From Tuwongella immobilis (GTDB lineage: Bacteria > Planctomycetota > Planctomycetia > Gemmatales > Gemmataceae): DNA of 64,000 nucleotides. The first letter of the stretch is position 1, and each line of letters begins with the position of its first letter. This document shows, piece after piece, positions 182 to 27,469 of this stretch. The stretch covers positions 4,998,920 through 5,062,919 of the forward strand of contig NZ_LR593887.1 of the NCBI RefSeq assembly GCF_901538355.1. The letters are read 5' to 3'. Below the pieces are notes generated by a model, which worked only from the letters and a program-made list of their open reading frames with translations, did no database searches and was not told the origin of the DNA. The position numbers and the translations under genes are program-made.

Positions 182-1240
182 ATGACTGTCCCAACGCCTA
201 CCCCGTCAAGTTCCTCGCCCCATCTTCTTGTGCGTGCCGCTCGGGGCGAACCCGTCGAACGCACCCCGGTCTGGGCGATGCGACAAGCAGGCCGTTGGGA
301 CCCCGAATTCAATCGCGTTCGCGCGGGCATGACGTTCTACGAATTCAGCGAGAATGTCGAAAAATCGGCCCAGGCTTCGCTCTGCCCACGTCGGTTTGGC
401 GTGGACGGAATTATTCTGTTCTACGATATCACCACACTCCCCGTCGCCATGGGGCAGTCGTACACGCTGCAACCGCATCATGGCCCGGTGCCGGATCACC
501 CGATTCGGGACTTCGACGACCTGGAGCAACTCACCGCCCTGCCCGATCCGCGGAGTTATCAGCACATTCGCGATCTGCTGGCCCAAGTGAAGGCGGAACT
601 TCGCGGCGAATTGCCGATTCTCGTGTTCGCGGGTGCCCCCTTCACCGTGGCCACCTACTGCATCGGCACCGGCAAAAATATCGACGCCACCCGACAATTC
701 GCCCGCGAAAAGCCGGATCTGTGGGACGCTCTACTCGACCGACTCACCGGCGCCACCGTGCAATTCCTCAGCACACTCGCCTCCGATGGCGCAGACATGT
801 ACCAACTCTTCGATTCCTGGGCGGGCATGCTCACCCCCGAAGAATACGATTTGTGGGCACAGCCGCAGCACCGTTCGATCTTTTCGATGGTGTCCACGAT
901 TCCCCGCATCTTGTTCGTGAAGGAAAATCCGTACCTGGATCGCATGGCCCATAGCGGGGCGGACATTATCAGCCTGGGTAAACGTCATTCGCTGGCCGAG
1001 GCCAAAGCGCAATATCCGCATCTGGTGTTTCAAGGGAATGTCGATGACGATTTGATGCAAACCGGCACCCCGGAACAAGTTGCGGAAGCAACCCGCCGCT
1101 GCCTGGAGGAAGGTGGCGGCCATCGTCACATTCTCAACCTCAGCCATGGAATGGATCGTTCCTCACCGGTGGCCAACTTCGAAGCCTTCGTGCGAACCGC
1201 CCACACCTACACTCCTTCCACCCGCGCTGAATCGAGGTAA
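182..1240 (+). CDS. hemE: uroporphyrinogen decarboxylase
   Basis: A 352-residue cytoplasmic enzyme, the normal family length. It removes the four acetate carboxyl groups of uroporphyrinogen III to give coproporphyrinogen III in heme synthesis. The family signature RQAGR is at residues 34-38, in the context WAMRQAGRWDPE. LFDSWAGML, which forms part of the active-site cleft, is in the middle, and QGNVDDDLM plus NLSHGMD lie near the C-terminus. The last motif is usually NLGHGI; the Gly-to-Ser change at its third position is a small deviation. The ATG at 182 is the only sensible start, although the Shine-Dalgarno sequence is weak. The gene sits 15 bases after the ubiE fragment and 4 bases before the HtrA-like protease gene, so all three probably share a transcript. 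Confidence 0.95.
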   Translation: MTVPTPTPSSSSPHLLVRAARGEPVERTPVWAMRQAGRWDPEFNRVRAGMTFYEFSENVEKSAQASLCPRRFGVDGIILFYDITTLPVAMGQSYTLQPHHGPVPDHPIRDFDDLEQLTALPDPRSYQHIRDLLAQVKAELRGELPILVFAGAPFTVATYCIGTGKNIDATRQFAREKPDLWDALLDRLTGATVQFLSTLASDGADMYQLFDSWAGMLTPEEYDLWAQPQHRSIFSMVSTIPRILFVKENPYLDRMAHSGADIISLGKRHSLAEAKAQYPHLVFQGNVDDDLMQTGTPEQVAEATRRCLEEGGGHRHILNLSHGMDRSSPVANFEAFVRTAHTYTPSTRAESR

Positions 1241-1244
1241 TCGC

Positions 1245-2759
1245 ATGGCTCAGGCCCGTTGGCGTGCATGGTCATGGCTGTTGGTGCTGTGGATGGGGCT
1301 GCCGTTGAGCGCAGTCGCCCAGCCGGATGATCCGCGCGCCCAGTTGCTCGCGGTGCAAAAAGCCATGCAATCCGCCATCGAACAGGCCGAACCCGCCATC
1401 GCCTGCGTGCTGGTCTCCCGTTCGGATCGCTACACGCAACTCGCGCCGCGATTCGCGCCTGCCAATGCCTCGATCCCCGGTCAGTTGGGCAACTTCGATT
1501 CGCGGCCATTTCTCAACGGCCCCGACGAGAAATTGGCCCGCCGATTGGATCTCAGCGACCCGGACACCGTCCCCGATGCCTACGGCTCGGGTGTCGTCCT
1601 CGCATCCACCGGCTTGATTCTGACCAACTACCACGTCATTCAAGACGCCACGAAAATCTTCGTTCGCCTGCCAGGGCGAATCGGCAGTTATGCCGACATT
1701 CACGCGGCCGATCCCCGATCCGATCTCGCCGTCCTGAAATTGCAGCGCAACCTCGGTCCGCTCAAGACGTTACCGCTGGGTGATGGTGCCGCGGTCCGCA
1801 AAGGCGACTGGGTGATTAGCCTCGCCAACCCGTTCGCCGTCGGCTTCCGCGATGGCTCCCCGTCGGCCTCTTGGGGGATCATCAGCAACCTGCGCCGCCG
1901 CGCTCCCGGCTCGCTACGTGAAGAACAACGCACCCGCTCGCTGCACCATTACGGCACACTCATTCAGACAGATGCCCGACTGAATCTCGGCGTCTCCGGC
2001 GGGGCATTGATTTCGCTGCAAGGCGAACTGATTGGCCTGACCACATCGCTGGCCGCCGTTGTCGGTGGCGAGACTGCGGGCGGATTCGCCATCCCCATGG
2101 ATCGCAATCTCAAGCGGATTGTGCAGGTGCTGCTCGACGGCCGCGAGGTGGAATACGGCTTTCTAGGAATCGCTGTCGGTCCGCCCGGCCCGCCCAGTCC
2201 CAGTGTGGGAATCGAGGTGCGCTCCGTGACCCCCGGCTCCCCCGCCGCCATCGCCGGAATCCGCCCCGGCGACACACTCACCGGAATCGACGGCCAGCCC
2301 GTCCGCGAACCCGATGATCTGTTTCTGCATGTCGGCAGCGCATTAGCCGGGAACGAAGTGGTGCTCTCGCTGGTTTCGCAGCTGGGAAATGCCCGCCGCG
2401 TCACCACTCGATTGGCAAAATTCTACCTGAATCAGGGCAGCATCGCCTCGCAACGCCCGCCCGCTGTCTTTGGATTGCGCGTCGATTATTCCAGCGTCAT
2501 GCTCGACGCCGTTCGACTCACCGAAGTGCCGCGTGGCGTGCTCGTCCGCGAAATCGAGCCGGGATCGCCCGCCGAGCAAAAATTGAAGAAACTCCAAGAC
2601 AACGTCGGTCGGCTCCTGATTACCGAAGTGAACGGCGTGCCCATCATCAATCCGAGCGAATTTCTGCGTGAATCCGCCAAAAAGCCGCAGCAAATCACCC
2701 TCAGCGTAGTCGATGCCAACCGCCCCGACGATCCCCCGCAAACGATTCGCCTCCCCTGA
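1245..2759 (+). CDS. HtrA/Deg-like serine protease with two PDZ domains
   Basis: A 504-residue exported protease. The start at 1245 follows GAGG and gives a proper signal peptide (WSWLLVLWMGLPLSAVAQ); a longer frame beginning inside hemE would lack one. The trypsin-like domain holds the triad: His130 in TNYHVIQD, Asp160 in DPRSDLAVL and Ser251 in GVSGGALIS. The usual GNSGG is GVSGG here, with the serine kept. Two PDZ domains follow at about residues 300-385 (FLGIAVGPP to the SPAAIAGIRPGDTL loop) and 405-500. The family degrades or refolds damaged envelope proteins. Placement 4 bases after hemE is unexpected for a quality-control protease and probably reflects shared transcription, not shared function. 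The substrate is unknown. Confidence 0.88.
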   Translation: MAQARWRAWSWLLVLWMGLPLSAVAQPDDPRAQLLAVQKAMQSAIEQAEPAIACVLVSRSDRYTQLAPRFAPANASIPGQLGNFDSRPFLNGPDEKLARRLDLSDPDTVPDAYGSGVVLASTGLILTNYHVIQDATKIFVRLPGRIGSYADIHAADPRSDLAVLKLQRNLGPLKTLPLGDGAAVRKGDWVISLANPFAVGFRDGSPSASWGIISNLRRRAPGSLREEQRTRSLHHYGTLIQTDARLNLGVSGGALISLQGELIGLTTSLAAVVGGETAGGFAIPMDRNLKRIVQVLLDGREVEYGFLGIAVGPPGPPSPSVGIEVRSVTPGSPAAIAGIRPGDTLTGIDGQPVREPDDLFLHVGSALAGNEVVLSLVSQLGNARRVTTRLAKFYLNQGSIASQRPPAVFGLRVDYSSVMLDAVRLTEVPRGVLVREIEPGSPAEQKLKKLQDNVGRLLITEVNGVPIINPSEFLRESAKKPQQITLSVVDANRPDDPPQTIRLP

Positions 2760-2769
2760 CGAGAACGCC

Positions 2770-3585
2770 ATGCGCTACGCCATCTGCAACGAGACTTTCG
2801 CCGATTGGGACCACGCCCGAATCTGCGACACGGTCGCCAGTTTGGGCTACACCGGCCTGGAAATCGCCCCATTCACGCTTGCTCCGCGGATTACCGATGT
2901 GTCGGCCACCCGCCGCGCGGAACTCACCCAGCAGGCCAAAGCCGCCGGCATCGAAATCCTCGGCCTGCACTGGCTGCTGGCCAAAACCACCGGCTTCATG
3001 ATTACCTCGCCGGATGCCGAAATTCGGGCCACCACCGCCGCCTATCTGTGCGAACTCGCCCGCGCCTGCCGCGACCTGGGCGGGAATATTCTCGTGCTCG
3101 GCTCACCGCTGCAACGACGCATCCCCGAAGGCGCAACCCGTTCGCAGGCAACCGATTACGCACTGCTGACCTTGGAGCAAGTGCTTCCCGCACTCGATGA
3201 AACCGGCGTGCAATTGTGCCTGGAGCCACTCGCCCCAACCGAAGCAGATTTCCTGAATACCGCCGATGAAGGCTTGGCGATGATGCAGCGATTGAACCAC
3301 CCGCTGGTCAAACTGCACCTGGACGTGAAGGCGATGTCCAGCGAAGCCGAGCCGATTCCGACGATTCTGCGCAAGCACATCCCGCACACCGGCCATTTCC
3401 ACGCCAACGACCCGAATCTCCGCGGCCCCGGCTTCGGCGACATGGATTTCCGCCCAATTTTCGCCGCCCTGCACGAAACCAATTACCCCGGCTGGGTATC
3501 CGTCGAAGTCTTCGATTACAAACCCGACCCCGTCACCATCGCCCGCGAATCGATCCGCTACATGCGCGAATGCGCCGCCAACTAA
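2770..3585 (+). CDS. sugar phosphate isomerase/epimerase (TIM barrel)
   Basis: A 271-residue protein of the xylose-isomerase-like TIM-barrel family (AP endonuclease 2 fold). It begins MRYAICNETFADW; the start at 2770 lies 10 bases after the protease stop, and an earlier ATG at 2713 would overlap that gene. Metal-binding stretches typical of the family are seen: LCLEPLAP in the middle, KLHLDVKAM, HFHANDPNLRGPGFGDMDF and WVSVEVFDY near the end, giving the usual Glu/Asp/His/Glu ligands. Members isomerise or epimerise sugars or inositol derivatives. There is no signal peptide, so it is cytosolic. The substrate cannot be inferred from the neighbours. It is the last gene of the ubiE-hemE-protease run. 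Confidence 0.82.
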   Translation: MRYAICNETFADWDHARICDTVASLGYTGLEIAPFTLAPRITDVSATRRAELTQQAKAAGIEILGLHWLLAKTTGFMITSPDAEIRATTAAYLCELARACRDLGGNILVLGSPLQRRIPEGATRSQATDYALLTLEQVLPALDETGVQLCLEPLAPTEADFLNTADEGLAMMQRLNHPLVKLHLDVKAMSSEAEPIPTILRKHIPHTGHFHANDPNLRGPGFGDMDFRPIFAALHETNYPGWVSVEVFDYKPDPVTIARESIRYMRECAAN

Positions 3586-5675: not shown

Positions 5676-7034
5676 TCACTTGGCGGGAATTAGCTCCACC
5701 GCCAGCAGCCGATCTTTCCCGCGCACGTACAAGATTCCATGCGAGACCACCGGGGCGGCCCAACAGGGGTACGATAGCTTCTCGCACTCCCAAATCGCAC
5801 GTTCTTCATACTTTTCGGGATTGATCCGCAGCAGCCGCAGCACCCCTTCTTCGCTCTGCGAAATCAAATGGCCATCGATTTGCAGCAGCGACGATCGCCC
5901 GTGACCGGACTTTTTCCACTGCAACTCGCCGTCCGCCAATTTGATGCAGCGCAGCTCCGCATTGCTGGTGTGCCGCCCGCTGGAACCGTAGACATATCCA
6001 TCAACGTGAATCGGTGTATTCCAGTGGCACTGCATGCGCTTATCGCGTCCCTGGTCGGAATCGTCCCAGATCGATTCCACCTTTTTGCCATCGAATTTGA
6101 GCAACGCACTGCCCGGCCCGTAACATTCGGTAATCAAGATTTGATCCTTGACCACGATGGGATTGCTGGCGTTCACGCTCTCCAGAATGCGAGCCCGCCA
6201 GGGGAATTGGAACAAATCGGTGCCGGCTTTGGGGTCGAATCCGTACAGTCCGCCACGCGCGAAATACAACCCGACCCGCTGATTGCCGATGTTCGTGAGC
6301 ACCGGCGTGGCGTAACTCGCCAGATCGTTGCCGATGGTGTAGCGGACTTCGCCAGTCTTTTTATCCAGCGCCACAATCGCTTGCTGATTCGGCTTGGCGT
6401 CTCGGAAATCATCCGGTCGGCGCTCCCCGGCCGGCGATCCACCCACCGCCACCAGCAGCAAATCCCCTTCGACCACCGGCGTGGAACCGACGCCGAAGAA
6501 ATTCTGATGGATGTTGTACTTCTTCGCGGTATCCAACTGCCAAATGCGCTCGCCGGTCACCGCATGCAGACAGACCAGCATCCCTTCCGGGCCATAAATA
6601 TACACCCGGTCCTCATCCACCACGGGGCAACAGCGGGGGCCATTGGAATAGCCGTAAAAATCTTCATACGTTGTGGGATAGCGAAATTCCCAAAGGCGCT
6701 TTCCCGTCTCGGCATTGCGACAGGTCAGCACCTGCGAATTGTCCACACGATCGAAATGGTACAACCGCCCCAGCGATGTCGTGGGGGCCGCATAGCCTTC
6801 GCCCAGCGGAGCTTCCCAGATGATTTTCAGCCCCGTGGCAGGCCAAGTGGTGAGAATTCCCTTTTCAGGAGACACGCCGTCTTGCGTGGGGCCCAGGAAT
6901 CGCGGCCAATCGACCCCGGTTTTGCGAGTTCGCAGGTCGCGCTCGGTGGTGTTCACGGGCGCGGGTTCTTCCGCCACACTTCGCGAACAACCCACCACAC
7001 CCACCACGCACAGAATCATCAGCAATCTTCGCAT
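5676..7034 (-). CDS. PQQ-like beta-propeller lipoprotein
   Basis: A 452-residue exported protein. The N-terminus MRRLLMILCVVGVVGCSRS carries a lipobox (VVGC), so it is probably lipid-anchored. The mature part begins with WPRFLGPTQDG and then IIWEAPLGEGYAAPTTSLGRLY, the entry signature of planctomycete PQQ-like (outer-membrane quinoprotein type) propellers, followed by repeated blades with AxTGxxxW-type motifs such as HAVTGERIWQLDT and DKKTGEVRYT. The family is built from eight WD40-like blades; most members have no demonstrated enzyme activity or bound PQQ. The start at 7034 is supported by GAGG upstream. A close relative (10608-11894) lies beyond the giant surface gene. Function is unknown beyond an envelope location. 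Confidence 0.8.
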   Translation of the reverse strand: MRRLLMILCVVGVVGCSRSVAEEPAPVNTTERDLRTRKTGVDWPRFLGPTQDGVSPEKGILTTWPATGLKIIWEAPLGEGYAAPTTSLGRLYHFDRVDNSQVLTCRNAETGKRLWEFRYPTTYEDFYGYSNGPRCCPVVDEDRVYIYGPEGMLVCLHAVTGERIWQLDTAKKYNIHQNFFGVGSTPVVEGDLLLVAVGGSPAGERRPDDFRDAKPNQQAIVALDKKTGEVRYTIGNDLASYATPVLTNIGNQRVGLYFARGGLYGFDPKAGTDLFQFPWRARILESVNASNPIVVKDQILITECYGPGSALLKFDGKKVESIWDDSDQGRDKRMQCHWNTPIHVDGYVYGSSGRHTSNAELRCIKLADGELQWKKSGHGRSSLLQIDGHLISQSEEGVLRLLRINPEKYEERAIWECEKLSYPCWAAPVVSHGILYVRGKDRLLAVELIPAK

Positions 7035-7277: not shown

Positions 7278-10200
7278 TCAGCCGACGTAGACGCCGTTGA
7301 GCCCCAACGGATCGGGGAACGGCGTGAACGCTTCTTGAATCGGTCCCGCGTTCGGTGCCACCAAATTGAGCAGTGATGCCCGATAGGTTTGCACACGGGC
7401 ACTGACTCCGCCTCCGGTGCCGACGACGAGATCGGCCAGGGCATCGCCATCGATATTCTTCACCGCCACCCGCACACCGCCGCGAAGGTCCGGCGAGAAC
7501 GCGAAGAAGTTCGACAGCGGCGCATCCAGCGAAGCCGGTCGGCTGGGGTCGATGGTCGAGGCTTGCAGACTGCGAGCGCCATCGAGAATCATCACCCGCG
7601 GCCCCCCATTCGGGCCACCGCCCAAGACAATCTCCGCAAAGCCGTCGCCGTTCATGTCACCAGATGCGACATACACCCCATCGCGCAGCGACGGCTCGAA
7701 GGCGAAAAAGTCCGGAATCAGCTTCACCGGCGTGGATTGCGTCAGCGATTTCCCATCGTACAACGCCAGCCGCGGCCCACCGGAAATCCCTGCCCCGACG
7801 ATCAAATCCGGGGTGCCATCGTTGTTGATGTCGCCCATCGCAATGCGGGCACCGCCGCGGAAATTCAAATCGTCGATGCCAAAGAAATTCCCAATCTGCA
7901 CGAGTGTGCCATTCTGGAACCGGAAAATCTGGATGCGTGCCCCACCGCCGTTATCCGGCGAGACGACGATTTCCGCCTTGCCATCGCCGTCGAGATCGGC
8001 CGCCGCCACGAATAAGCCGATGTTGGTGAATTCTTCGCCCGGATTGGTGCGGAAGATGCCGCCGTTGAGCAGGTCCGTGCCGCTTCCGCCCCGCAGAATC
8101 CGCAGACGATCGCCGCCGCCCGGCCCGGTCACGAGGATATTGTCCTCGATCCCGTCGCCATCGACATCGCCGACCGTCCCGCGCACTTCGGCGGCAAATT
8201 CCGGGAACGGCACCAGCGTACTGACTTCGACGGTCTTCGCGGTCGCGGTGTCGAATCGATAGCGTTGGACGGTGTTGCCGCCGCCGGATGCCAGCAGCAC
8301 GGAACCGAGCGGCGACGGTTGCGGATTCGGGATCGGATCCACCGGCGTGGAAGTCAGGCTGAGCGCATCCGAAAATTCCGAGGTGTCGCCGGTCGTCAAA
8401 TCGGTCGCCGTGGCGGTCAGGGTGGTGAATTGACTGCCGATGCTGGAGAGCGACGCGGTGAAACTGGCGTTGCCGCTGGCGTCGCTGGTCACTTCGATGC
8501 TGCCGACGAACAACAGCCCTTCCGGCCCGGAGGCGGCGGTGTTGGCGAAAATTTCGATGCGGAATCGTCGGTTCGGCGTGCTGTTGATGCTCCCCTGCAC
8601 CGTCGGCGTGCTGCCGCTGGTCAGACTGCTGAGCGTGGGCCGATTCTGGAGCCGATTGGCGCCGGCGTCCGGGTCTTGATCGTCGTTGGCAGTCACGCCC
8701 ACGGGTGCGAGGTCGATGCCCAATCCGCCGTTGGCCGAAATGATATTGCTGAGGATGCGATTGCCGGTGCCCGATTCCACCAGCACGCCGGCCAAGGCAT
8801 TGTTGGCGATGCGATTGCCCGCGCCCGCGGCCAGCCCGCCGATGGTGTTGTTATTTCCCGTGATTCGCAGGCCGTTTCGTGCATTGGCGATCACCACCGT
8901 GTTGAGATCGTCCACGCCGGAGCCGATGCGCATGCCGGTGACGCTGTTGCTGTTGCCCGCCAGCACGATGCCATCGCCGAGGTTGCCGCTGACTGTCTGT
9001 CGGGAGCCGATGACGAATTTCCCGGCGAGCGTGTTGCTGTTGCCGGTGATGTGGATGCCGTCGCCGCCGTTGGCAATCGCTTTGGTGCTGGGTCCGTTGA
9101 TGCCGACGAAATTGCCTTCGATGGTATTGTTGTCGGTGCCAATGAAGATGCCGTGGCCGGTGTTGCCACTGACGGTGTTGCCCAGGAATGATCCCAGCGA
9201 ACCGATTCGATTGCTGCTGGCCCCGTCGCGCAGGCTGATTCCGTCGCCGCCGTTGCCGAGGTCCACCTCCGCGGCGAGATCGACCCCGATGGAATTGCCA
9301 TCAATGAGCGTGCCGGTGGCCTTGGTGCCGCTCAGCCGAATGCCATCGCTGGTGTTGCCGCTGATGACGTTGCCGGAATTGGCCAGCGATGGGCCGATGA
9401 CGTTTCCGCCGCCCGAAACGAAGACACCGAATCGCCCGTTGCCGATCGCGCCACTCCCGGTGGGGCCGACGCCGATGGAATTGCCGATGAGCTGGTTGCT
9501 GTTGCCGGTGAGTTGCACCCCGTCGGAGCCGTTTCCGCTGATGGTCTGATATTTTCCGGTGGTGAAATCACCCTGCACGGTGTTGGAATTCCCGGAAATG
9601 GCCACGCCAGCGAGGGTGTTGCCCAGCGCGGCGGTTGCGCCCACGGTCACGCCAATGCGATTGCTGGCGACGGTGTTGGTGTTGCCCGCGATCAGAACGC
9701 CGTTGCCCAGATTGCCGCTGATGAGATTGCCCGCGTTGACGCCGACTTCGCCGACGAAATTCCCCGTTGCGCCGCTGCTGACGGTCACGCCGTTGCCGCC
9801 ATTGGCGATTGCGGATTCCCCCGTTGCGGCGGTGCCGATGAAATTTTGCAGAAGCCGATTTCCCGTGGCTCCCTCCGCAATCAGCACGCCATCGCCGGAG
9901 TTGCCGGAAATCAAATTGCGCGAGTCCGGCAACGTGCCGCCGAGAATGTGATTATCGCCGGTGATGCGGATGCCCACGCCGTTTGGCGCGGCGGTGGTGC
10001 CAACTTCGTTGGTGCCGATGAAATTGCCGGTGATAATCGCTAGATCGGAATCGAGCTGAATGCCCGCCCCGGAGAAATTGCGGATGTTCAACCCGCTGAT
10101 ACTGCTGCCGGAATGCCCGGTGAGCGTCAGCCCGTTGACGGCATTGCCCGCGTTGGTGCCGTCGATGGCAATGCGAATGATGCTGTTAATCGCCAGTGGA

Positions 10201-10478
10201 TCGGTATTGTTCACTGATCCGGGCTGCGTGGTGCCGTCGATGATGACCGGCGCGGTGATCGCCGGCAGCGCCGATTCCACGCTGATGATCTGCGTTCCTT
10301 CGCCCGGAATGTTGAATTCGATGGTGTCAATGTCGGCACTGCCATTGGCGGCAATGATGGCCTCACGAAGCGACAACACGCTGTCCGAATCGTTCACCAC
10401 ATCGCTTGCAGTGGTCACCACAAACGTCGCGGGAACGGTTCGGTCTTCGAGCGGGAGAATCTTCAGTGGTTGCGACAT
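7278..10478 (-). CDS. giant surface protein: CSLREA, beta-helix and FG-GAP repeats
   Basis: A 1066-residue protein starting at ATG 10478, with GGAG ten bases upstream. No classical signal peptide is seen; instead residues 2-16 contain LKILPLEDRTVPATF, the LEDRTVPA leader common in very large planctomycete proteins. A CSLREA-like element (VLSLREAIIAANG) and DTIEFNIPG follow, then about 450 residues of right-handed beta-helix built from cycles such as NLISGNSGDGVLI and IAGNTNTVASNRIGV. Next come an Ig-like domain (about 610-700) and FG-GAP/VCBS-type propeller repeats with calcium-loop motifs DVDGDGIED, DLDGDGKAE, DINNDGTPD, DMNGDGFAE and NIDGDALAD. The protein ends LGLNGVYVG. Probably extracellular or surface-bound; ligand unknown. 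The domain order resembles the 1976-residue protein at 21539-27469. Confidence 0.82.
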   Translation of the reverse strand: MSQPLKILPLEDRTVPATFVVTTASDVVNDSDSVLSLREAIIAANGSADIDTIEFNIPGEGTQIISVESALPAITAPVIIDGTTQPGSVNNTDPLAINSIIRIAIDGTNAGNAVNGLTLTGHSGSSISGLNIRNFSGAGIQLDSDLAIITGNFIGTNEVGTTAAPNGVGIRITGDNHILGGTLPDSRNLISGNSGDGVLIAEGATGNRLLQNFIGTAATGESAIANGGNGVTVSSGATGNFVGEVGVNAGNLISGNLGNGVLIAGNTNTVASNRIGVTVGATAALGNTLAGVAISGNSNTVQGDFTTGKYQTISGNGSDGVQLTGNSNQLIGNSIGVGPTGSGAIGNGRFGVFVSGGGNVIGPSLANSGNVISGNTSDGIRLSGTKATGTLIDGNSIGVDLAAEVDLGNGGDGISLRDGASSNRIGSLGSFLGNTVSGNTGHGIFIGTDNNTIEGNFVGINGPSTKAIANGGDGIHITGNSNTLAGKFVIGSRQTVSGNLGDGIVLAGNSNSVTGMRIGSGVDDLNTVVIANARNGLRITGNNNTIGGLAAGAGNRIANNALAGVLVESGTGNRILSNIISANGGLGIDLAPVGVTANDDQDPDAGANRLQNRPTLSSLTSGSTPTVQGSINSTPNRRFRIEIFANTAASGPEGLLFVGSIEVTSDASGNASFTASLSSIGSQFTTLTATATDLTTGDTSEFSDALSLTSTPVDPIPNPQPSPLGSVLLASGGGNTVQRYRFDTATAKTVEVSTLVPFPEFAAEVRGTVGDVDGDGIEDNILVTGPGGGDRLRILRGGSGTDLLNGGIFRTNPGEEFTNIGLFVAAADLDGDGKAEIVVSPDNGGGARIQIFRFQNGTLVQIGNFFGIDDLNFRGGARIAMGDINNDGTPDLIVGAGISGGPRLALYDGKSLTQSTPVKLIPDFFAFEPSLRDGVYVASGDMNGDGFAEIVLGGGPNGGPRVMILDGARSLQASTIDPSRPASLDAPLSNFFAFSPDLRGGVRVAVKNIDGDALADLVVGTGGGVSARVQTYRASLLNLVAPNAGPIQEAFTPFPDPLGLNGVYVG
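7290..8270 (-). repeat. FG-GAP/VCBS-type repeats in the 1066-residue protein
   Basis: About five imperfect coding repeats, each holding an Asp/Asn-rich calcium-loop motif (DxDGDGxxD type) followed by a Gly-rich strand such as VSPDNGGGARIQIF or VGAGISGGPRLALYD. The arrangement predicts a beta-propeller at the C-terminus. Confidence 0.75.
8750..10060 (-). repeat. coding repeats of a parallel beta-helix
   Basis: Imperfect repeats of about 60 codons that alternate ISGNxxDGVxxxGNxN and NxIGVxxxGxxAxGN units. At DNA level the phrases GTGTTGCCGCTGATG and TTGCCGGTGAT recur in many variants. This is protein-level repetition, not a mobile or satellite element. Confidence 0.7.
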
Positions 10479-10607: not shown

Positions 10608-11894
10608 TTACTCCACCAAGGGAATGCACACCAATTCATAGGGGCCGGTGGCGGTGGGGCGTTCGCCGCCGTCGTTGCGGGCAATCAGAAACTTCCCGGC
10701 AAACGCCGGATGCGACCACACCGCGCCGCTCAGCACTTGGGTGCGGGATTGCTCCTGGAAGCCCTCCGGAGACAATCGCCCGAGAATCAATTCGCCCCGA
10801 CTATTGAGGCTGAGAATCCGATCGCTCCCGTTCAGCCAAACGAAGCTGGCATGCGGATTGCGACCGGCAGGGGTCATGCTGTTTTCATCATCCCAGCGTT
10901 TGCGGCCCGTCTTGAGATCGAACGCGGTCAGCCCGTTGCCCTTATCGATGGTGTAAACGATGCCATTGCGTTCCAGCGGCTGGGCCATCAGCCCACGCAA
11001 ATTGCGACGGTCTTCCCAGATGAGTTCAAAATCCGTCGGTTTCGGCCCCAAGCGAATCGCCTTCGAGCCATCCCAATAACCGGTGATGAACAGGATTCCG
11101 TCTCGGTAAATCGGCGTGGCAATGGAGACACCATAGGTGATGGGATACGGCACTTTCCAAAGCGGTTTGCCATCGGCGGGATCGATTCCGCGAATGAATT
11201 CCGGCGTCCAGACAATCATCATCGGCCCGCTGGGCGCATCGATCAAAATCGGCGTGCAGTATCCCGCAGGATCGGGCAGACTCCGCCAGATTTCCCGCCC
11301 CGTGTGCCGATTCAACGCCAGAATGCAGCCATTGGGTTTGGCCGCGACATGCAGATAAACCTTGTCGCCATCAATCACCGGCGAGGCGGCAAATCCCCAC
11401 GTGGGAACCTCGGCTTGAACTTCCTTCACCAAATCTCGCTGCCAAACAACCTTGCCGGTGGCCACTTCCAGACAAGCGGCGTGGCCGACCGCCCCCAGCG
11501 TATAGACCCGATCGCCATGAATCGTCGGCGCGGCCCGTGGCCCATTCGCGTAGCCGCCCAGATTGCCGTATTTCACCGGCGTGCGATGTTCCCACAGCAA
11601 TTTGCCATCGGCCAGCGACAGGGCGACCACCCGCTCCACTTGCTGGGTGCCATCCAATTGCACATCCATGGTCAGCACCCGGCCATCGGCCACCGAGATG
11701 CCCGCGTAGCCGCCACCGATGGGGACTTTCCAAGCGGGTTTCAGCCCGGATTGCGGCCACTGTTCGGGCAATTTCGGGCCGTTCCAGGTGCCATCGCCGC
11801 GCGGCCCACGCCACTTTGGCCAATCTTCCGCTCGCGTCGCGGGTGCTCCAATCACCAGCAAAATCATCAGGATTGCGGTCGCCGATCGTCGCAT
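10608..11894 (-). CDS. secreted PQQ-like beta-propeller protein
   Basis: A 428-residue protein with a signal peptide (ATAILMILLVIGAPATRA) and no lipobox, so probably released into the periplasm. The mature start DWPKWRGPRGDG is the same entry motif as in the lipoprotein at 5676-7034. LKPAWKVPIGGGYAG and blades such as EVATGKVVWQRDL, NRHTGREIWRSL and LKTGRKRWDD follow, each ending a propeller strand. The start at 11894 has a near-ideal AAGGAGGG Shine-Dalgarno sequence. The gene lies 12 bases after the Gfo/Idh/MocA oxidoreductase gene, so the two are probably cotranscribed. The family rarely has a proven activity; binding of PQQ is not assumed. Confidence 0.82.
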   Translation of the reverse strand: MRRSATAILMILLVIGAPATRAEDWPKWRGPRGDGTWNGPKLPEQWPQSGLKPAWKVPIGGGYAGISVADGRVLTMDVQLDGTQQVERVVALSLADGKLLWEHRTPVKYGNLGGYANGPRAAPTIHGDRVYTLGAVGHAACLEVATGKVVWQRDLVKEVQAEVPTWGFAASPVIDGDKVYLHVAAKPNGCILALNRHTGREIWRSLPDPAGYCTPILIDAPSGPMMIVWTPEFIRGIDPADGKPLWKVPYPITYGVSIATPIYRDGILFITGYWDGSKAIRLGPKPTDFELIWEDRRNLRGLMAQPLERNGIVYTIDKGNGLTAFDLKTGRKRWDDENSMTPAGRNPHASFVWLNGSDRILSLNSRGELILGRLSPEGFQEQSRTQVLSGAVWSHPAFAGKFLIARNDGGERPTATGPYELVCIPLVE

Positions 11895-21538: not shown

Positions 21539-24500
21539 TTAGCCGACCCACACCCCGCTCAGGCTGAGCAGATCGTTGTTGGCGTAGAACTCATCCAACA
21601 GCGTCGGGGTCGAGGTGTTGCCTTGGTTCACACCGGTGGCATAGGTCTTGACCAAGTTCCCATGGCCGGGGCCAGCACCGATGATGAGATCCCAGTTATC
21701 GTCGGAGTTGAGTTGCGCCGTCGCCACTCGAACACCCGTTCGCCAGTTCGGATTGAAGGCGAAGAAGTTCAACAGCGTGGATGGGATGCCGTTGACCACG
21801 AGATTGGCAGCATCGAAGACCGCCACCCGCGGACCGCCACCCGGACCAGCTCCGACGACCACATCAAAGCGGCCATCGTCGTTGACATCGCCCGCGGCGA
21901 CATAGACGCCATCGCGTTGCGTTTGCTCGAAGGCGAAGAAGTCGGCGAGTCGTCGGGTGTTCGCTCCCGCTCCCGCGGCGAGTTCCTTCCCGTCGAACAC
22001 GGTCACCCGCGGACCACCACCGAAACCGGCACCCGTGATTAAGTCCGGGGTACCATCGCCGTTGACATCGCCCGCCCCAACTCGCACGCCACCGAGGAAG
22101 GTTTCCTCGTAGGCGAAGAAGTCGGCAATGGCCTTGTTGCTGGCACCGTCGAAGATTCGCACCCGCGAACCACCGCCCAAGTCTGCCCCAACGACCAGTT
22201 CCACCAGACCATCGCCGTTGAAGTCGGCCGCTGCGACGAGCACGCCGCCGGTGAACCGCGCTTCGTAAGCGAAGAAGTCTCGCAGAACCGATCCATCGCG
22301 GCCACTGAAGACCGTGACGCGCGGACCACCACCCGGACCGGCCCCAGTGATGATGTCTTCGATGCCGTCGCCGTTGACATCGCCCGACGCGACTCGGATT
22401 TCACCCGAGAAGGCACCGAACGGCTGATACGACGAACTTGCCGTCGAGCGACCATTTTCATCCACGGAATAACCGGTGATGATGCCCGCACTGCCGGACT
22501 GCGTGAGGTAGACCGGCGGCACGAAACCGGGCGGAACCGGCGGATTCGGCGGAACCGGCGGATTTGGCGGCGTCTGAACCACTTGATTGAAGAAGTTCTG
22601 ATCGGCCAGACCACCCGCGCTGACGATCGAGACCACCCCGTCGGCTGCGGCGCCCGGCAATCGGATGATCTGCCAGCCCGTTTGCAGCACTTCCGACAGC
22701 TTGTGCGTGCCATCCGGGACATTCGCGAAGGAGTATGCCCCCGTCGCATCCGTCACCGTGGTCGCATCGATGGTTCCATCGTTGTTGATGTCGAGTTGGA
22801 TGGTCCAACCCGCCAGCCCCACTTCGCCGGTGTCGAGCGTGCCGTTGCCGTTCAGGTCGTTGACCTTGATCCCGCTGATGGTCGCAGGCGGGACCACTGG
22901 CGGAGGCGGAACAACCCCTTGCGTGGTGTTCAAGAAGTTGTTGTCGGCGCGGGTTTCCCCGTTGATGATCGTAATCAATCCCGGAGCCGCCGTTTGCCGC
23001 CAGCCGGTTTGCAGCACTTCGCTGACCGCGTGCGTGCCGTTGGGCAGACCCAGCCCACCGAATCCCGGAGTGGTCGGACCGAACGAATACGCCCCGGTCG
23101 AACTGGTGATCGTAGTCGCGTCGATGGTGCCGTTGTTGTCCAAATCCAGTTGGATCGTCCAACCCGCTAATCCCGGTTCGCCCGGATCGAGAATCCCGTT
23201 GGCATTCAAATCATCGAACTTGAAGCCGGAGATCGTCCCAGTCGATGCCGTCACCAGACGGACATCGGAGTATCGGGAAGTCCCGTCTGAGTTCGGTCGC
23301 AGGATGCCATCCGAGAAGATCAAGCCCGGCGTCAAGTCGGTCGCTGTCGCGGTGATCGGCGTGTTCACGGGGAACGGAGCCGACTTCCCGGCAAAGCGAT
23401 CGATCACGAACTTGGTCGAACCGTTCCCTTGGGCATCCGTCGTGATCGTCGCCGATCCGATGTAGGTCTGCCCGATGCGTTGGTTCAGGCCAACTTCCGC
23501 GGCCGCGTTGATGTAGTAATCGATGCGGTAGGTGCGGAATGGTCGGGTGACCATCGCCGTCGGGATTTCCGTCCGATCGAACGACGACTGCGAAATCTGC
23601 AACAACGGATAGTTCTGACCGCGGTTCGGTCCACCATCCAAGTCCAACAAGTCGGAGATCCGATCCGGTTGGAGTTGGTTGGGATCTTGTGCCCCGTTGT
23701 AGAACGTGATGCCGTTGTTCGGCTGCGTTCCGTTGCGGAAAATACTGTTGGCATATACTCGGGTATCGACTGGGCTACCCAAAATATTGTTCGCCACCGG
23801 CAGAATGTTCGGCGCGGGGTAAGCGTCAATCGCCAACGCTTGGGTTGCGCTGCCATCCACCGTCCGCACGGTCAATCCACCAATCGCGCCTTCGGGCACG
23901 GTGACGAAGATCGCTCGTTTGTTCTGGGCAATCACCGGGTCAATCCCGTTGATCTGCCCGTTGAAAACGGTCGTGAACGTCACCGAGTTCGGAGCAATCG
24001 CCGAGGTGATGTCCAGATCGAACAGCAAGGCAATCCGTTGCCCGATTTGGGCACTGGTGATGGCCGAGAAGTTGCCCGAATCGATTTCGCGGATGGCATT
24101 CTGATCGGCGAAATCGACCTTGGAATGCTTGGCGATCGTCGCCTTGTTGCCAAACGCGGTCGAGCCTTCCAAGTTGGTGACCGTGACGATCTGATCGGCC
24201 AACGGGAACTCTGCCCCAGTGGCATATTCCGGCACTTCCACGAGCAATTGCGTATCGCTGAGCACCTTGAAGCGGGCTTGCAAGCCACCCGCGAAGACCA
24301 CTTGCTGCGTGTTGGTGAACCGCTGCCCGTTGAAGGTGAAATGCGCCCCGGGAATGATCCCAGCCAGCGAGACACTTGCCGTCGTCAGAACCGGAGCGCC
24401 ACCGATGCCGTTGACGGAGATCGAGCTCCCCGCAACTGCCGTTCCAGCCGGTGTTTCCAGTTCGACGATGTAGTTCGTTCCCACAGTCAACGAATCTGGG

Positions 24501-27469
24501 ACAATCACCCGTACTTCGTTATCCGAGATGACCTGGAAGAACTTCGTGGTTTGGTCGTTAATGCCACCCACATCGTTAAACAGAATCTCCGTGGTGCCGG
24601 TGAATCCGGTACCGGTGATCGTCATAATCCCGTTCGTGGAAGTCCCGGAAGCGAGATTATTCAGATCCACGCGGAAGTATTCGTTGTGGAAATTCGGCTC
24701 ATTTCCACGCACCACCGTACCACTGGAAAGGGTATTGATGGTCGGCAGCGGCGCCGGAGTCAGCACAAATCGCTCACCCAAGTTCACCGTCACAAATGAA
24801 TCGGTGTTGACTTCGATGTACGAGTTGGAAGATTGCCCCCGATTGAACGTCTGCCCGTTGGGTCCAAGCTGATCGTAGCCGGGCGGCCGTTCAGGGGCCG
24901 ACAACCCGTTGATGCTCGTCAGCGATCCCAACGCGCTGGGGGTCGTTCCGGGCGCAATCACGGTAAACATGACTTCGCCGAACACGCCTTGGAGTTCCGG
25001 GGTGTTCGGAATGCGGAACACCAAATCGTAGTCAACGATTGCACCAAACGGATCGGTGACCGGAATCAGCCGGAACCCCTCGGGATTAGTCACCGAGTTA
25101 TACGGAGCAATGACGGCCAGATTGTTGTAGCCACCGAAACCGACTTCGCGACCAGATGGCGAAAACGGATCATAGCGCGAGATGATGATTCGCGAGACAC
25201 CCCGGACGTTCGTCCCGTTCAGCCGTACCAGCGTCCCAATTGGACCCGTGGCAGCTTGCTCGAATGAGGGAATCGTCGGAATCGGCGGAGCAATCACGCT
25301 GAAGCTTGGGTTGGTCAGCAGATTGGTCGTTGCCGTGCCGAACGGAGTTTGCAGCGTCAGCACGCCGGAGGTCGCATTCAGCGGCACCTTCACCCGCACG
25401 AAGGTATCGGAGATCACTTCGATATCCGCCGGATTCACGGCCAAGCCGTTGAACAGAATTCCGGTGGTAAACAGCAATCCCGAGCCGCCGATACCGATGG
25501 TCGAACCGACCACCCCACCCGGCGTGAAGGTGTTAATGACCGGCGCGGCGGATGCCGTAAAGGTGAATTTCTGATTCGCCAGCGGCAGATCCGACGTATC
25601 GTCGTTGCCGCCTGCGGTGAAGACTTCGACGAAGCCGCTGGAGCCTGCAACCACATTCGGGACGATCACCCGCAGCCGTTCACCCGTGGGATCAATCTCG
25701 AATGACTTCGCTTCGACGCCAGCAATGGTGACCTTGCTGGTCGTCCAGAACATCCCCACCCGCTGATTGAACGGGAGCGTTTCATCCGCGAAAATGGTGA
25801 TTTCCGTACCTGCCGGGCCGGTTCGTGCCAGGAAGTTTCCAATATCCGGCACGGGCGTCGGTGTGATCGTCAAGAATGTCGTTGCGGAGCCGGCGGCGGT
25901 GAACACTTCCAGGACGTTTGGCCCGTTGACCACACCGACCGGAACAATGAACTCGATCCGCGAATCACTGATAATGTTCAGCGTCGACAGATCGACATCC
26001 ACCCCGTCAATTTGAACTTTGTTCGTCGCCGTCAGACCGAAGCCGGTGACGGTAATCGTCTGCCCGCGTTGTGCGGTCGGGTTGTTCGTCACCCCCAGCG
26101 AAACCGGAGCCACCGGGATTTCCACTGTGAACGATGCCGTACTGGTGACGGTTCCACCAACGGTAGCCAGCGTCAGGGTCTGATCGCCAACCGGGACATT
26201 GTCCGTGACTGTGATGCGAACTCGAGTGTCGGACAGCACCTCGAAGGGCACCACCACGCCACCCAGCTTCACGGTTTGCGTGCTGGTCAGGTCGGTACCA
26301 TTGATGATGAGCACCGTACCGGGACCACCACTGCCGAACGAGTTCGACCCGTTGACCAATTCGATGATTGGTGCATTCCACGTGAAGTAACGCGGCGTGA
26401 ACGAGCCATCGTACGTCGTCGGGAACAGCCCCTTGTAGAAGCTCGCCGAGATCGGGTACGGCGTGGGGGCAACGCGAATCCCGTCGTTGCGGTTGAAGGT
26501 AATCAGGTTTTGCAGATCCGACCGCAGCGGGTTACCGATGACGTTGCCGTCGGCCCCGTTGATGACTTCGATGCCGACGATGTTCGGCAACGCCGTCTTG
26601 CCGTCCGCTGCCGTGCCGATGTAGTTGCCCTGAATCAGGTTGCTGGTCGTGCCCACATCCTGAAGCCGCACACCGGGGCCAGACGCATAGCTGGGATTGA
26701 TTTGCGAATCGAGTTGCAGCGGAGTCGGCGTGTTCGACAACACGTTACGGTTGGTGTCGATGGTGCCGCCAATGACTCGCCCGCCCGCATCGACCAGCGG
26801 ATTGCCCGCCAGATCCACCGTACCGCCGATGATGTTGTTGGTGGCGCCGTTGGCAACCAAAACTTGCACCAAGTTCGGCCGAGTGGCCAGCGTCTTGTCG
26901 GTTCCCGTGAACCCGTTGATATCCGTGCCGATGTAGTTGCCGACGATGATGTTGTTGTCGGAACCGTTGATATGAATGCCCGCGACCGGCATCCCGTTGA
27001 TGATAAACCCGCGAATCATATTGTTCGCCGAGGTGGGGCCGAGCTCGAAGCCGCTCTTGTTCCCCTGCCCCGTGGCGAAAATCGTCGAGCCAGTGATTTC
27101 GATGATGGGCACATTGCCCGCCGCGGCGTAGCCCGGCTGAGTGGTGGCATCAATCGCCACACCCGAGGGATCCGTCAGCACCGGCAGGCCGGTGGCCAAG
27201 CGGATGCTGAACCGCGCACCAATCGACGGGTCGGTCGGAATCGCAAATTGGATGCGATCGAAGCCCGGCGTGGCGTTCGCCTGGTCCATCGCATCTCGCA
27301 ACGAACCGGTACCGGAATCCAGCACGTTGGTGACCGTGAAGACCGCTGGCACCGAGCGATCTTCCAACCCCTGCAGCTCCAGCATCGGGGTGGCGGGTTG
27401 ATGATACCGACGCGAACGAGGGCTCTGGAGGAACGCCCTCATCCAGCGTTGCAGGCGAGACGAGGTCAT
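21539..27469 (-). CDS. giant surface protein: beta-helix, IPT/TIG, SdrD-B-like and FG-GAP domains
   Basis: A 1976-residue protein starting at ATG 27469, nine bases after AAGGA; an upstream TTG in frame is too close to that site. A basic N-terminus leads to MLELQGLEDRSVPAVFTV, the LEDRSVPA leader, then a CSLREA-like segment (SGTGSLRDAMDQANATPGF). A short beta-helix follows. From about residue 350 to 1150 come several IPT/TIG-like Ig domains with repeated VTGxGF and VISDSRIEFIVP-type strands. Two SdrD-B-like domains lie at about 1411-1510 and 1530-1630 (DLNANGILDPGEPGLAGW, DLNGNGTLDTGEVGLAGW), and FG-GAP propeller repeats from about 1660 to the end. The protein ends LLSLSGVWVG. Probably a long extracellular adhesin or matrix protein with calcium sites; the partner is unknown. 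Confidence 0.85.
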   Translation of the reverse strand: MTSSRLQRWMRAFLQSPRSRRYHQPATPMLELQGLEDRSVPAVFTVTNVLDSGTGSLRDAMDQANATPGFDRIQFAIPTDPSIGARFSIRLATGLPVLTDPSGVAIDATTQPGYAAAGNVPIIEITGSTIFATGQGNKSGFELGPTSANNMIRGFIINGMPVAGIHINGSDNNIIVGNYIGTDINGFTGTDKTLATRPNLVQVLVANGATNNIIGGTVDLAGNPLVDAGGRVIGGTIDTNRNVLSNTPTPLQLDSQINPSYASGPGVRLQDVGTTSNLIQGNYIGTAADGKTALPNIVGIEVINGADGNVIGNPLRSDLQNLITFNRNDGIRVAPTPYPISASFYKGLFPTTYDGSFTPRYFTWNAPIIELVNGSNSFGSGGPGTVLIINGTDLTSTQTVKLGGVVVPFEVLSDTRVRITVTDNVPVGDQTLTLATVGGTVTSTASFTVEIPVAPVSLGVTNNPTAQRGQTITVTGFGLTATNKVQIDGVDVDLSTLNIISDSRIEFIVPVGVVNGPNVLEVFTAAGSATTFLTITPTPVPDIGNFLARTGPAGTEITIFADETLPFNQRVGMFWTTSKVTIAGVEAKSFEIDPTGERLRVIVPNVVAGSSGFVEVFTAGGNDDTSDLPLANQKFTFTASAAPVINTFTPGGVVGSTIGIGGSGLLFTTGILFNGLAVNPADIEVISDTFVRVKVPLNATSGVLTLQTPFGTATTNLLTNPSFSVIAPPIPTIPSFEQAATGPIGTLVRLNGTNVRGVSRIIISRYDPFSPSGREVGFGGYNNLAVIAPYNSVTNPEGFRLIPVTDPFGAIVDYDLVFRIPNTPELQGVFGEVMFTVIAPGTTPSALGSLTSINGLSAPERPPGYDQLGPNGQTFNRGQSSNSYIEVNTDSFVTVNLGERFVLTPAPLPTINTLSSGTVVRGNEPNFHNEYFRVDLNNLASGTSTNGIMTITGTGFTGTTEILFNDVGGINDQTTKFFQVISDNEVRVIVPDSLTVGTNYIVELETPAGTAVAGSSISVNGIGGAPVLTTASVSLAGIIPGAHFTFNGQRFTNTQQVVFAGGLQARFKVLSDTQLLVEVPEYATGAEFPLADQIVTVTNLEGSTAFGNKATIAKHSKVDFADQNAIREIDSGNFSAITSAQIGQRIALLFDLDITSAIAPNSVTFTTVFNGQINGIDPVIAQNKRAIFVTVPEGAIGGLTVRTVDGSATQALAIDAYPAPNILPVANNILGSPVDTRVYANSIFRNGTQPNNGITFYNGAQDPNQLQPDRISDLLDLDGGPNRGQNYPLLQISQSSFDRTEIPTAMVTRPFRTYRIDYYINAAAEVGLNQRIGQTYIGSATITTDAQGNGSTKFVIDRFAGKSAPFPVNTPITATATDLTPGLIFSDGILRPNSDGTSRYSDVRLVTASTGTISGFKFDDLNANGILDPGEPGLAGWTIQLDLDNNGTIDATTITSSTGAYSFGPTTPGFGGLGLPNGTHAVSEVLQTGWRQTAAPGLITIINGETRADNNFLNTTQGVVPPPPVVPPATISGIKVNDLNGNGTLDTGEVGLAGWTIQLDINNDGTIDATTVTDATGAYSFANVPDGTHKLSEVLQTGWQIIRLPGAAADGVVSIVSAGGLADQNFFNQVVQTPPNPPVPPNPPVPPGFVPPVYLTQSGSAGIITGYSVDENGRSTASSSYQPFGAFSGEIRVASGDVNGDGIEDIITGAGPGGGPRVTVFSGRDGSVLRDFFAYEARFTGGVLVAAADFNGDGLVELVVGADLGGGSRVRIFDGASNKAIADFFAYEETFLGGVRVGAGDVNGDGTPDLITGAGFGGGPRVTVFDGKELAAGAGANTRRLADFFAFEQTQRDGVYVAAGDVNDDGRFDVVVGAGPGGGPRVAVFDAANLVVNGIPSTLLNFFAFNPNWRTGVRVATAQLNSDDNWDLIIGAGPGHGNLVKTYATGVNQGNTSTPTLLDEFYANNDLLSLSGVWVG
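21560..22440 (-). repeat. FG-GAP/VCBS-type repeats in the 1976-residue protein
   Basis: About five coding repeats of 60-65 codons with DVNGDGIED, DFNGDGLVE, DVNGDGTPD, DVNDDGRFD and a last degenerate LNSDDNWD, each followed by GAGPGGGPRVTVF or a close variant. The same DNA phrase (ACATCGCCCG, CGCGGACCACC) recurs in each. Confidence 0.78.
22580..23240 (-). repeat. tandem pair of SdrD-B-like domains
   Basis: Two successive coding units of about 300 bases. Both contain GLAGWTIQLD, NNGTIDATT or NDGTIDATT, GAYSF and SEVLQTGW. An internal duplication is clear, with one copy carrying an extra FGGLGLP insertion. Both contain calcium-type Asp/Asn clusters, as in staphylococcal B repeats. Confidence 0.78.

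What the first reader, a model, noticed from the sequence alone, without database searches (positions are those of the whole stretch)
7278..10478. Shared start and end signatures of the two giant surface proteins
Two large proteins (1066 and 1976 residues) that differ in the middle both start with a basic stretch then LEDR(T/S)VPA, and both end with L-x-L-(N/S)-GV(Y/W)VG at the very C-terminus after FG-GAP repeats. Neither has a classical signal peptide. The leader may be a planctomycete export signal and the end may be a last propeller strand or sorting tag.
Basis: partly seen in the sequence, partly recalled or inferred. Interest (0 to 1): 0.6.

Follow-up and report, generated by a model that had tools for sequence, protein, structure and literature searches.

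The report
Export leader and propeller-closing end strand
Two large proteins of a planctomycete bacterium share a start that looks like an already described export label and an end that looks like the strand snapping a ring-shaped domain shut, and dozens of sister proteins carry the same pair, so the finding is real but mostly explained.

Summary
START: the Gemmataceae form of the planctomycete cell-surface export motif, in print for Rhodopirellula and for Tuwongella immobilis (52 genes; PMC8567305), which this genome most likely is. It has no hydrophobic core, and 0 of 577 sampled ORFs reach a score that 51 of 54 family members reach. END: the inner strand A that closes a six-bladed FG-GAP/integrin-type propeller. 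The AlphaFold model (pLDDT 91) has 3 + 5x4 + 1 strands; its best VIA-align matches are six-bladed and aligned to the last residue; inner strands alternate arginine/aromatic, so an aromatic is expected in blade 6. A separate sorting-tag role is weakened, not excluded: the terminal glycine is stricter than inner strands explain. Start and end are separable modules. Verdict: known leader plus ordinary velcro closure; the propeller as common surface anchor is the open question.

The parts
10428..10478 (-). P0001 leader MSQPLKILPLEDRTVPA (residues 1-17)
   Evidence: leader HMM hit E 2.3e-10 at G000 5009302-5009442 (this row is in the model); AF2 mean pLDDT 30 and 38 for residues 1-20
8531..10427 (-). 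P0001 middle: right-handed beta-helix-like repeats and linker, starting with a strand directly after VPA
   Evidence: Pfam Beta_helix 29.9 bits, cut-off 25.9; first strand residues 19-22 of the model; inner border approximate
7281..8306 (-). P0001 six-bladed FG-GAP propeller, strands 3 + 5x4 + 1
   Evidence: Pfam FG-GAP_3 74.3 and FG-GAP 63.4 bits, over cut-off; AF2 pLDDT 91, pTM 0.90; pdb_via Z 21.6-19.4
7281..7295 (-). P0001 C-terminal GVYVG, closing strand A of the sixth blade; stop 7278-7280
   Evidence: strand at model residues 352-354 of 355; pattern hit
27344..27469 (-). P0002 leader, 42 residues, arginine-rich, ending LEDRSVPA
   Evidence: leader HMM hit E 9.2e-11 (this row is in the model)
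21542..22606 (-). P0002 C-terminal segment with the same propeller (pre-unit, five full units, closing strand)
   Evidence: FG-GAP 46.6 bits over cut-off; 43% identical to the P0001 segment in alignment A1; units read from the sequence printed
21542..21556 (-). P0002 C-terminal GVWVG, closing strand; stop 21539-21541
   Evidence: alignment A1 last columns; pattern hit

Best explanation
The two signatures belong to a large family of modular proteins: leader, variable middle, propeller. The start (a short, usually basic stretch without hydrophobic core, then L-x-x-E-x-L-E-x-R-x-x-P-A) is the Gemmataceae form of the known planctomycete export leader; inferred, it is read by an unidentified export route and probably cut after the A, where the folded domain begins. 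The end (G-V-[FYW]-V-G-stop) is the innermost strand A of the sixth blade of an FG-GAP/integrin-type, calcium-loop propeller: the domain starts with strands B, C, D, runs through five full A-B-C-D blades and finishes with the missing strand A, which zips the ring shut (velcro closure). Shown by computation: motif distribution, module separability, strand count and fold. Inferred: export, cleavage, calcium binding, surface role.
For: Family: 57 distinct own-genome ORFs examined, 46 with the end motif, all 46 with a start motif by pattern. Start motif specific: leave-one-out score of 14 bits or more in 51 of 54 family leaders, in 0 of 577 ORFs from 39 sampled 20-kb stretches; strict pattern 49 of 57 against 2 of 577. 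No hydrophobic core: 0 of 66 candidate leaders reach mean hydropathy 2.0 over 10 residues, median 0.32; four classical signal peptides of the window 2.2-3.3. Leaders are followed by domains such as trypsin, subtilase, glucose dehydrogenase, beta-1,3-glucanase, kinds of enzyme usually exported (general knowledge). AF2 leaves residues 1-20 unfolded (pLDDT 30 and 38) with the first strand at 19-22. Published: the motif and 52 genes in T. immobilis, 20 detected, 8 only in the SDS fraction. End: AF2 propeller pLDDT 91, pTM 0.90, 24 strands with the last at 352-354; pdb_via best rows nidogen, designed SAKe6 and Keap1 Kelch, aligned to residue 355; the profile matches integrin alpha-V, E about 2e-13. 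In 91 aligned domains residue 3 of strand A (GGVxVA, fourth column printed) is R in blades 1, 3, 5 (77, 73, 80 rows) and F/Y/W in blades 2, 4 (75, 77 rows), so the aromatic of blade 6 follows the alternation. The end pattern is absent from 577 sampled ORFs.
Against: The blade-6 aromatic count (91 of 91) is conditioned, since rows were picked by an end pattern that demands it. The terminal residue is G in 89 of 91 rows, while inner strands have mostly A at that place, so the fold alone may not explain it; the same conditioning applies. In the 16 more divergent own members inner strands are more mixed. PF07595, the curated model of the leader, gives 7 weak hits and none over its cut-off, and 3 of 47 leaders match it at E up to 10. 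The low pLDDT of the leader model extends to residue 32, and only 7 sequences backed it. No strand-to-strand contact was measured in the model; closure is read from strand order and alignment to closed six-bladed propellers. Export and cleavage have no direct evidence here.
Confidence: 0.78

Rival explanations
1. The C-terminal GV[FYW]VG is a sorting or processing tag read by a dedicated machine, in the manner of the C-terminal signals of type IX secretion, PEP-CTERM or LPXTG proteins.
For: It sits exactly at the end in 41 of 46 own-genome members and the terminal G is stricter than in inner strands; a single exosortase gene is present.
Against: Found only on propellers: 0 of 577 sampled ORFs, and the non-family pattern hits are implausible frames or not stops. 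Five of 46 run 2-3 residues further and one more propeller ORF about 12 further. The same kind of strand occurs inside the domain in blades 2 and 4. No Por_Secre_tail domain in the genome. No hydrophobic or basic tail, PEP or LPXTG in the listed ends.
Confidence: 0.12
2. The shared ends only reflect recent duplication of whole genes and carry no function of their own.
For: Large paralogous expansion in this genome (87 matches).
Against: Middles differ (10 proteins scanned) and the propellers have diverged to 36-46% identity with P0001, while the leader alignment has 23% mean column identity with R, E and P kept. Leader and propeller occur apart: about 18 leader ORFs of the own genome lack the end (my reading).
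Confidence: 0.05
3. The leader is cut and exported by the NHLP-type C39 peptidase ABC exporter, as a double-glycine-like leader.
For: One C39 exporter with a neighbouring HlyD-type adaptor in the genome; leaders of both kinds lack a hydrophobic core (for double-glycine leaders recalled).
Against: C39 is missing in 7 of 13 genomes that all have leader hits, among them a 97% complete one with 124 leader hits and no C39; the leader ends in PA, not GG or GA.
Confidence: 0.04
4. The start motif is not an export signal but a domain-start or regulatory motif of proteins that stay inside the cell.
For: No hydrophobic core and no direct localisation evidence here; published fractionation found 8 of 20 detected members exclusively in the SDS fraction, so 12 were not exclusive to it.
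Against: It precedes secreted-type domains and is not seen in ordinary ORFs.
Confidence: 0.1

Closest known systems
Planctomycete extracellular leader (Studholme et al. 2004, known to me only through its citation in PMC8567305; Pfam PF07595; T. immobilis form in Seeger et al. 2021, PMC8567305)
   Same: N-terminal, core LExLExR, on very large surface-type proteins
   Different: Ends in xxPA rather than xLLA; below the PF07595 cut-off. P0001 departs from LxLExLExRxxP at two upstream letters, P0002 at one
Integrin alpha / FG-GAP (VCBS-type) beta-propeller
   Same: FG-GAP repeats with DxDxDG loops; profile match to integrin alpha-V
   Different: Six blades instead of seven, and closed by strand A from the C-terminus, whereas integrins take a strand from before the first blade (PMC3192720, passage seen)
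Keap1-type Kelch and designed SAKe6 propellers
   Same: Alignment from the first strands to the last residue of the model; six blades and, for Keap1, closure by the C-terminal strand are recalled
   Different: Sequence identity 6-17% in these rows; no FG-GAP calcium loops (recalled)
Fungal PVL/AAL lectins
   Same: Top Foldseek rows, E about 1e-8; titles name GlcNAc binding
   Different: TM-score 0.45 only; seven blades (recalled); no binding residues compared

Membership tests
Planctomycete extracellular leader (motif of R. baltica / T. immobilis) | Located at the N-terminus of large proteins | tested here: met
Planctomycete extracellular leader (motif of R. baltica / T. immobilis) | Core LExLExR with invariant R | tested here: met
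   Consensus LxxExLExRxxPA, R invariant in 47 rows; P0001 and P0002 themselves miss some upstream letters
Planctomycete extracellular leader (motif of R. baltica / T. immobilis) | Score over the curated cut-off of PF07595 | tested here: not met
   Best 20.4 bits against 25.5; no own-genome match over it. So this is a divergent form, not a PF07595 member by the curated rule
Planctomycete extracellular leader (motif of R. baltica / T. immobilis) | Directs export | not testable with these tools
   Published only as 'thought to represent' an export signal
FG-GAP repeat propeller | FG-GAP repeats over the Pfam cut-offs | tested here: met
   for P0001 and P0002; for 10 of 10 further proteins
FG-GAP repeat propeller | Closed ring of four-stranded blades | tested here: met
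   Model with 3 + 5x4 + 1 strands, aligned to closed rings; prediction, not experiment
Integrin alpha propeller | Seven blades, closed by an N-terminal strand | tested here: not met
   integrin closure
Sec signal peptide | Hydrophobic core | tested here: not met
   0 of 66 leaders reach 2.0
Type IX secretion C-terminal domain | Por_Secre_tail homology | tested here: not met
   No match in the genome; other type IX tail families were not searched
PEP-CTERM | C-terminal PEP, membrane helix and basic tail | tested here: not met
   Read from listed ends; one exosortase gene exists

The most novel reading that the evidence does not exclude
The six-bladed propeller is the common surface anchor of the family: a calcium-dependent, lectin-like C-terminal domain that holds otherwise unrelated secreted enzymes and giant repeat proteins on the planctomycete cell surface. 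Its closing strand, with a fixed C-terminal glycine, makes anchoring possible only once the whole chain has been exported, so the end is at once the latch of the fold and a completeness check.
Probability: 0.25. Interest if true: 0.62.

Novelty: new member of a known kind. Interest (0 to 1): 0.36.

Why it matters
It links a published but mechanistically unexplained export leader to a specific C-terminal domain that is shared by most of its carriers in this genome, which gives a defined module to test for surface attachment in a phylum whose secretion and surface organisation are poorly known. It also shows that the strict end motif has an ordinary structural explanation, so it should not be used as a sorting signal without experiment.

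Tried and rejected
A general C-terminal sorting tag was tested by asking whether the end pattern occurs off propellers; it does not in 577 sampled ORFs and the two odd pattern hits are implausible short frames. The C39 exporter was considered as leader reader and set aside because 7 of 13 leader-bearing genomes lack C39. PF07595 as a direct annotation failed its cut-off. NCBIfam gave no leader family for the 47 leaders at E up to 10. LEPR-XLL, which I remembered as a related NCBI domain name, was looked for in papers: one search found 7,089 papers with either 'planctomycetes' or 'LEPRxLL', the 10 listed showing no occurrence of 'LEPRxLL'; one search found 2 papers with 'LEPR-XLL', about other organisms, not read.

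Weak points of my counts. The crude tail test for a propeller is unreliable: it calls P0001 itself domain-free; its counts (37 of 43 own, 39 of 45 from other genomes) are only a rough check, and of the 6 own misses 4 still end in an aromatic closing strand, one of them with a longer tail. One of the 54 start pieces was a wrong piece of the right protein (ORF at 1402887), which probably explains the score of -0.1. Thirty of the 46 C-terminal segments were aligned for the model; the other 16, a more divergent group with units of about 52 residues, were only read by pattern, where several show the same R/aromatic alternation and others have S, T or N instead. In one search the 91 rows were the 46 own segments plus 45 of the 57 loci of other genomes, those whose end passes the pattern. 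Of the 54 start pieces, 47 went into alignment A2.

In print: no paper of the library holds both 'GVFVG' and 'planctomycet', and the T. immobilis proteome paper has no FG-GAP mention in its main text; supplementary tables could not be opened, so whether P0001 and P0002 are among its 52 genes is unknown. Paper use: PMC8567305 outline, passages and sections 19 and 26; PMC3192720, PMC9218822, PMC12288469, PMC10952558, PMC3797127 passages only; Studholme 2004 not seen.
Full report
OBSERVATION. Both proteins exist as described. P0001 runs from ATG 10478 to stop 7278 (1066 aa) and P0002 from ATG 27469 to stop 21539 (1976 aa), both on the minus strand. Their starts are MSQPLKILPLEDRTVPA and, after a 34-residue arginine-rich stretch, LEDRSVPA; their ends are LGLNGVYVG and LSLSGVWVG, directly before the stop. 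In the window each motif, written as a DNA pattern, hits just these two genes, against 0.11 and 0.00 expected. The one correction is that P0001 has no real basic stretch: one lysine before the motif, leader net charge 0.

EXTENT. The window lies in a single-contig genome of 6,690,754 bases. P0001 has 87 matches there at E up to 0.001, which I grouped into 56 ORFs; with one more LEDR locus I examined 57 distinct ORFs. Of these 57, 46 end in the closing motif with at most three further residues; 41 of the 46 end exactly at it. All 46 have a start motif by pattern. Genome-wide, the DNA pattern for the end gives 38 hits and its reversed control 4. Most likely the organism is Tuwongella immobilis: the paper on its proteome gives 4,016 to 10,566 residues for the longest proteins with the motif, and matching frames here give 4015 and 10565 codons from an ATG, one less in each case. 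This is inference; no name was supplied.

START MOTIF. The leader alignment has the consensus LxxExLExRxxPA with an invariant R in 47 rows. A leave-one-out score of at least 14 bits is reached by 51 of 54 family leaders and by 0 of 577 ORFs called in 39 sampled 20-kb stretches of the genome; my ORF calling was a simple composition filter. A stricter pattern gives 49 of 57 against 2 of 577. A profile search finds 66 places at E up to 1, of which the training rows match by construction; by my reading belong to ORFs with the closing end, about 18 are leader ORFs without it (two of them not read to their end), and 3 look spurious. The 46th ORF with the closing end (at 5438229) has LEAREVMS and is missed by the profile. 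No leader has a hydrophobic core: the highest 10-residue mean hydropathy is below 2.0 in 66 of 66, median 0.32, while four classical signal peptides of the window give 2.2 to 3.3. In the AlphaFold model of P0001 residues 1-330 the first 20 residues have pLDDT 30 and 38 and the first strand is 19-22, right after VPA at 15-17; but only 7 sequences support the model and confidence stays low up to residue 32. After the leader come domains such as trypsin, subtilase with P-domain, glucose/sorbosone dehydrogenase, beta-1,3-glucanase and Ig-like domains (10 proteins scanned), kinds that are usually exported (general knowledge).

The motif is not new. The proteome paper states that RRLxxExLExRxLLA in R. 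[quoted passage not shown] immobilis genes with LxLExLExRxxP, 20 detected and 8 of these exclusively in the SDS fraction (PMC8567305, section 19). The curated model PF07595 does not reach its cut-off on this genome, so the Gemmataceae form is a divergent relative.

END MOTIF. The 355-residue C-terminal segment of P0001, aligned with 29 paralogues (36-46% identical), gives a model with pLDDT 91 and pTM 0.90. [quoted passage not shown] Among chains re-aligned with VIA-align 2 the best are nidogen (Z 21.6, rmsd 2.9, 255 aligned), designed SAKe6 proteins and Keap1 Kelch domains (Z about 20), six-bladed rings by their titles or by recall, aligned up to model residue 355. Foldseek alone ranks fungal GlcNAc lectins first, with integrins among its first rows, and a profile of the alignment matches integrin alpha-V at about 2e-13. 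Strand naming and velcro closure follow Kopec and Lupas (PMC3797127, passages).

The sequence also predicts what the last strand should look like. In 91 aligned domains the variable residue of strand A (GGVxVA) is R in blades 1, 3 and 5 (77, 73 and 80 rows) and F, Y or W in blades 2 and 4 (75 and 77 rows); the terminal strand is blade 6 and is F, Y or W in all 91. The last count is inflated because rows were chosen by an end pattern that demands it. What the fold does not obviously explain is the final residue, G in 89 of 91 against mostly A inside, and the stop right behind it. Five own members run on for two or three residues and one other propeller ORF for about twelve, so a free carboxyl group on that glycine is not an absolute need.

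OTHER GENOMES. A profile-based scan gave 57 loci, mostly Gemmataceae such as Limnoglobus and Fimbriiglobus. Of 56 with a complete end, 43 carry the end motif; of 44 with a complete start, 35 carry the start motif. In 12 relatives plus the own genome, leader hits occur in 13 of 13 (8 to 124 per genome), while in the 12 relatives the end pattern gives only 1 to 9 hits, with controls of 0 to 9: one genome with 124 leader hits has 7 end-pattern hits against 3 in the control. Start and end are therefore separate modules, and the leader serves more proteins than the propeller does.

MECHANISM. Best reading: leader, variable middle and a C-terminal calcium-loop propeller closed by its last strand. 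Shown by computation: distribution, separability, fold, strand count, lack of a hydrophobic core. Inferred: export, cleavage after the A, calcium binding, surface role. Export route unknown: the single C39 exporter with its HlyD-type neighbour is not conserved among leader-bearing genomes (7 of 13 lack C39), no Por_Secre_tail domain is present, and the single exosortase has no matching tail in the ends listed.

VERDICT. A real, strong pattern; the start is a described motif, the end an ordinary closing strand in a six-bladed FG-GAP propeller that is shared by dozens of paralogues. What remains interesting is the domain as a possible common anchor and the strictness of its last residue.

Noticed in passing
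L232 7422-9557 and 9570-11072 (-): Single NHLP-type peptidase ABC exporter (TIGR03796 828.5 bits, cut-off 853.3) beside a HlyD-type adaptor (TIGR03794, over its cut-off); substrate unknown.
   Followed up: partly
G000:C1:6601037-6601798 (L233): One exosortase gene (PF09721, 193 bits) although the leader family has no PEP-CTERM-like tails.
   Followed up: no
L044 about 1030-2900 (+): Leader protein with an FG-GAP-like part that ends in a long tyrosine/aspartate repeat (YYDDGY) in place of the closing strand.
   Followed up: no
L129 from about 6331, and L231: Frame of about 10,600 codons with a leader of the LEDRNLLS type, nearer to the R. baltica form, and no closing-strand end.
   Followed up: partly
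L173, L183, L212: Contigs titled Bacteroidales bacterium UW1SPNA076 carry typical Gemmataceae propellers with the end motif, two of them with a leader; the bin or its label may be wrong.
   Followed up: no
G008 (relative, unnamed): 124 leader-profile hits in a 5.6-Mb genome, about twice the own genome, with few end-pattern hits.
   Followed up: no
window 5676-7034 and 10608-11894 (-): P0001 lies between two PQQ-like repeat proteins (by eye) that have classical signal peptides, so both export classes sit side by side.
   Followed up: no
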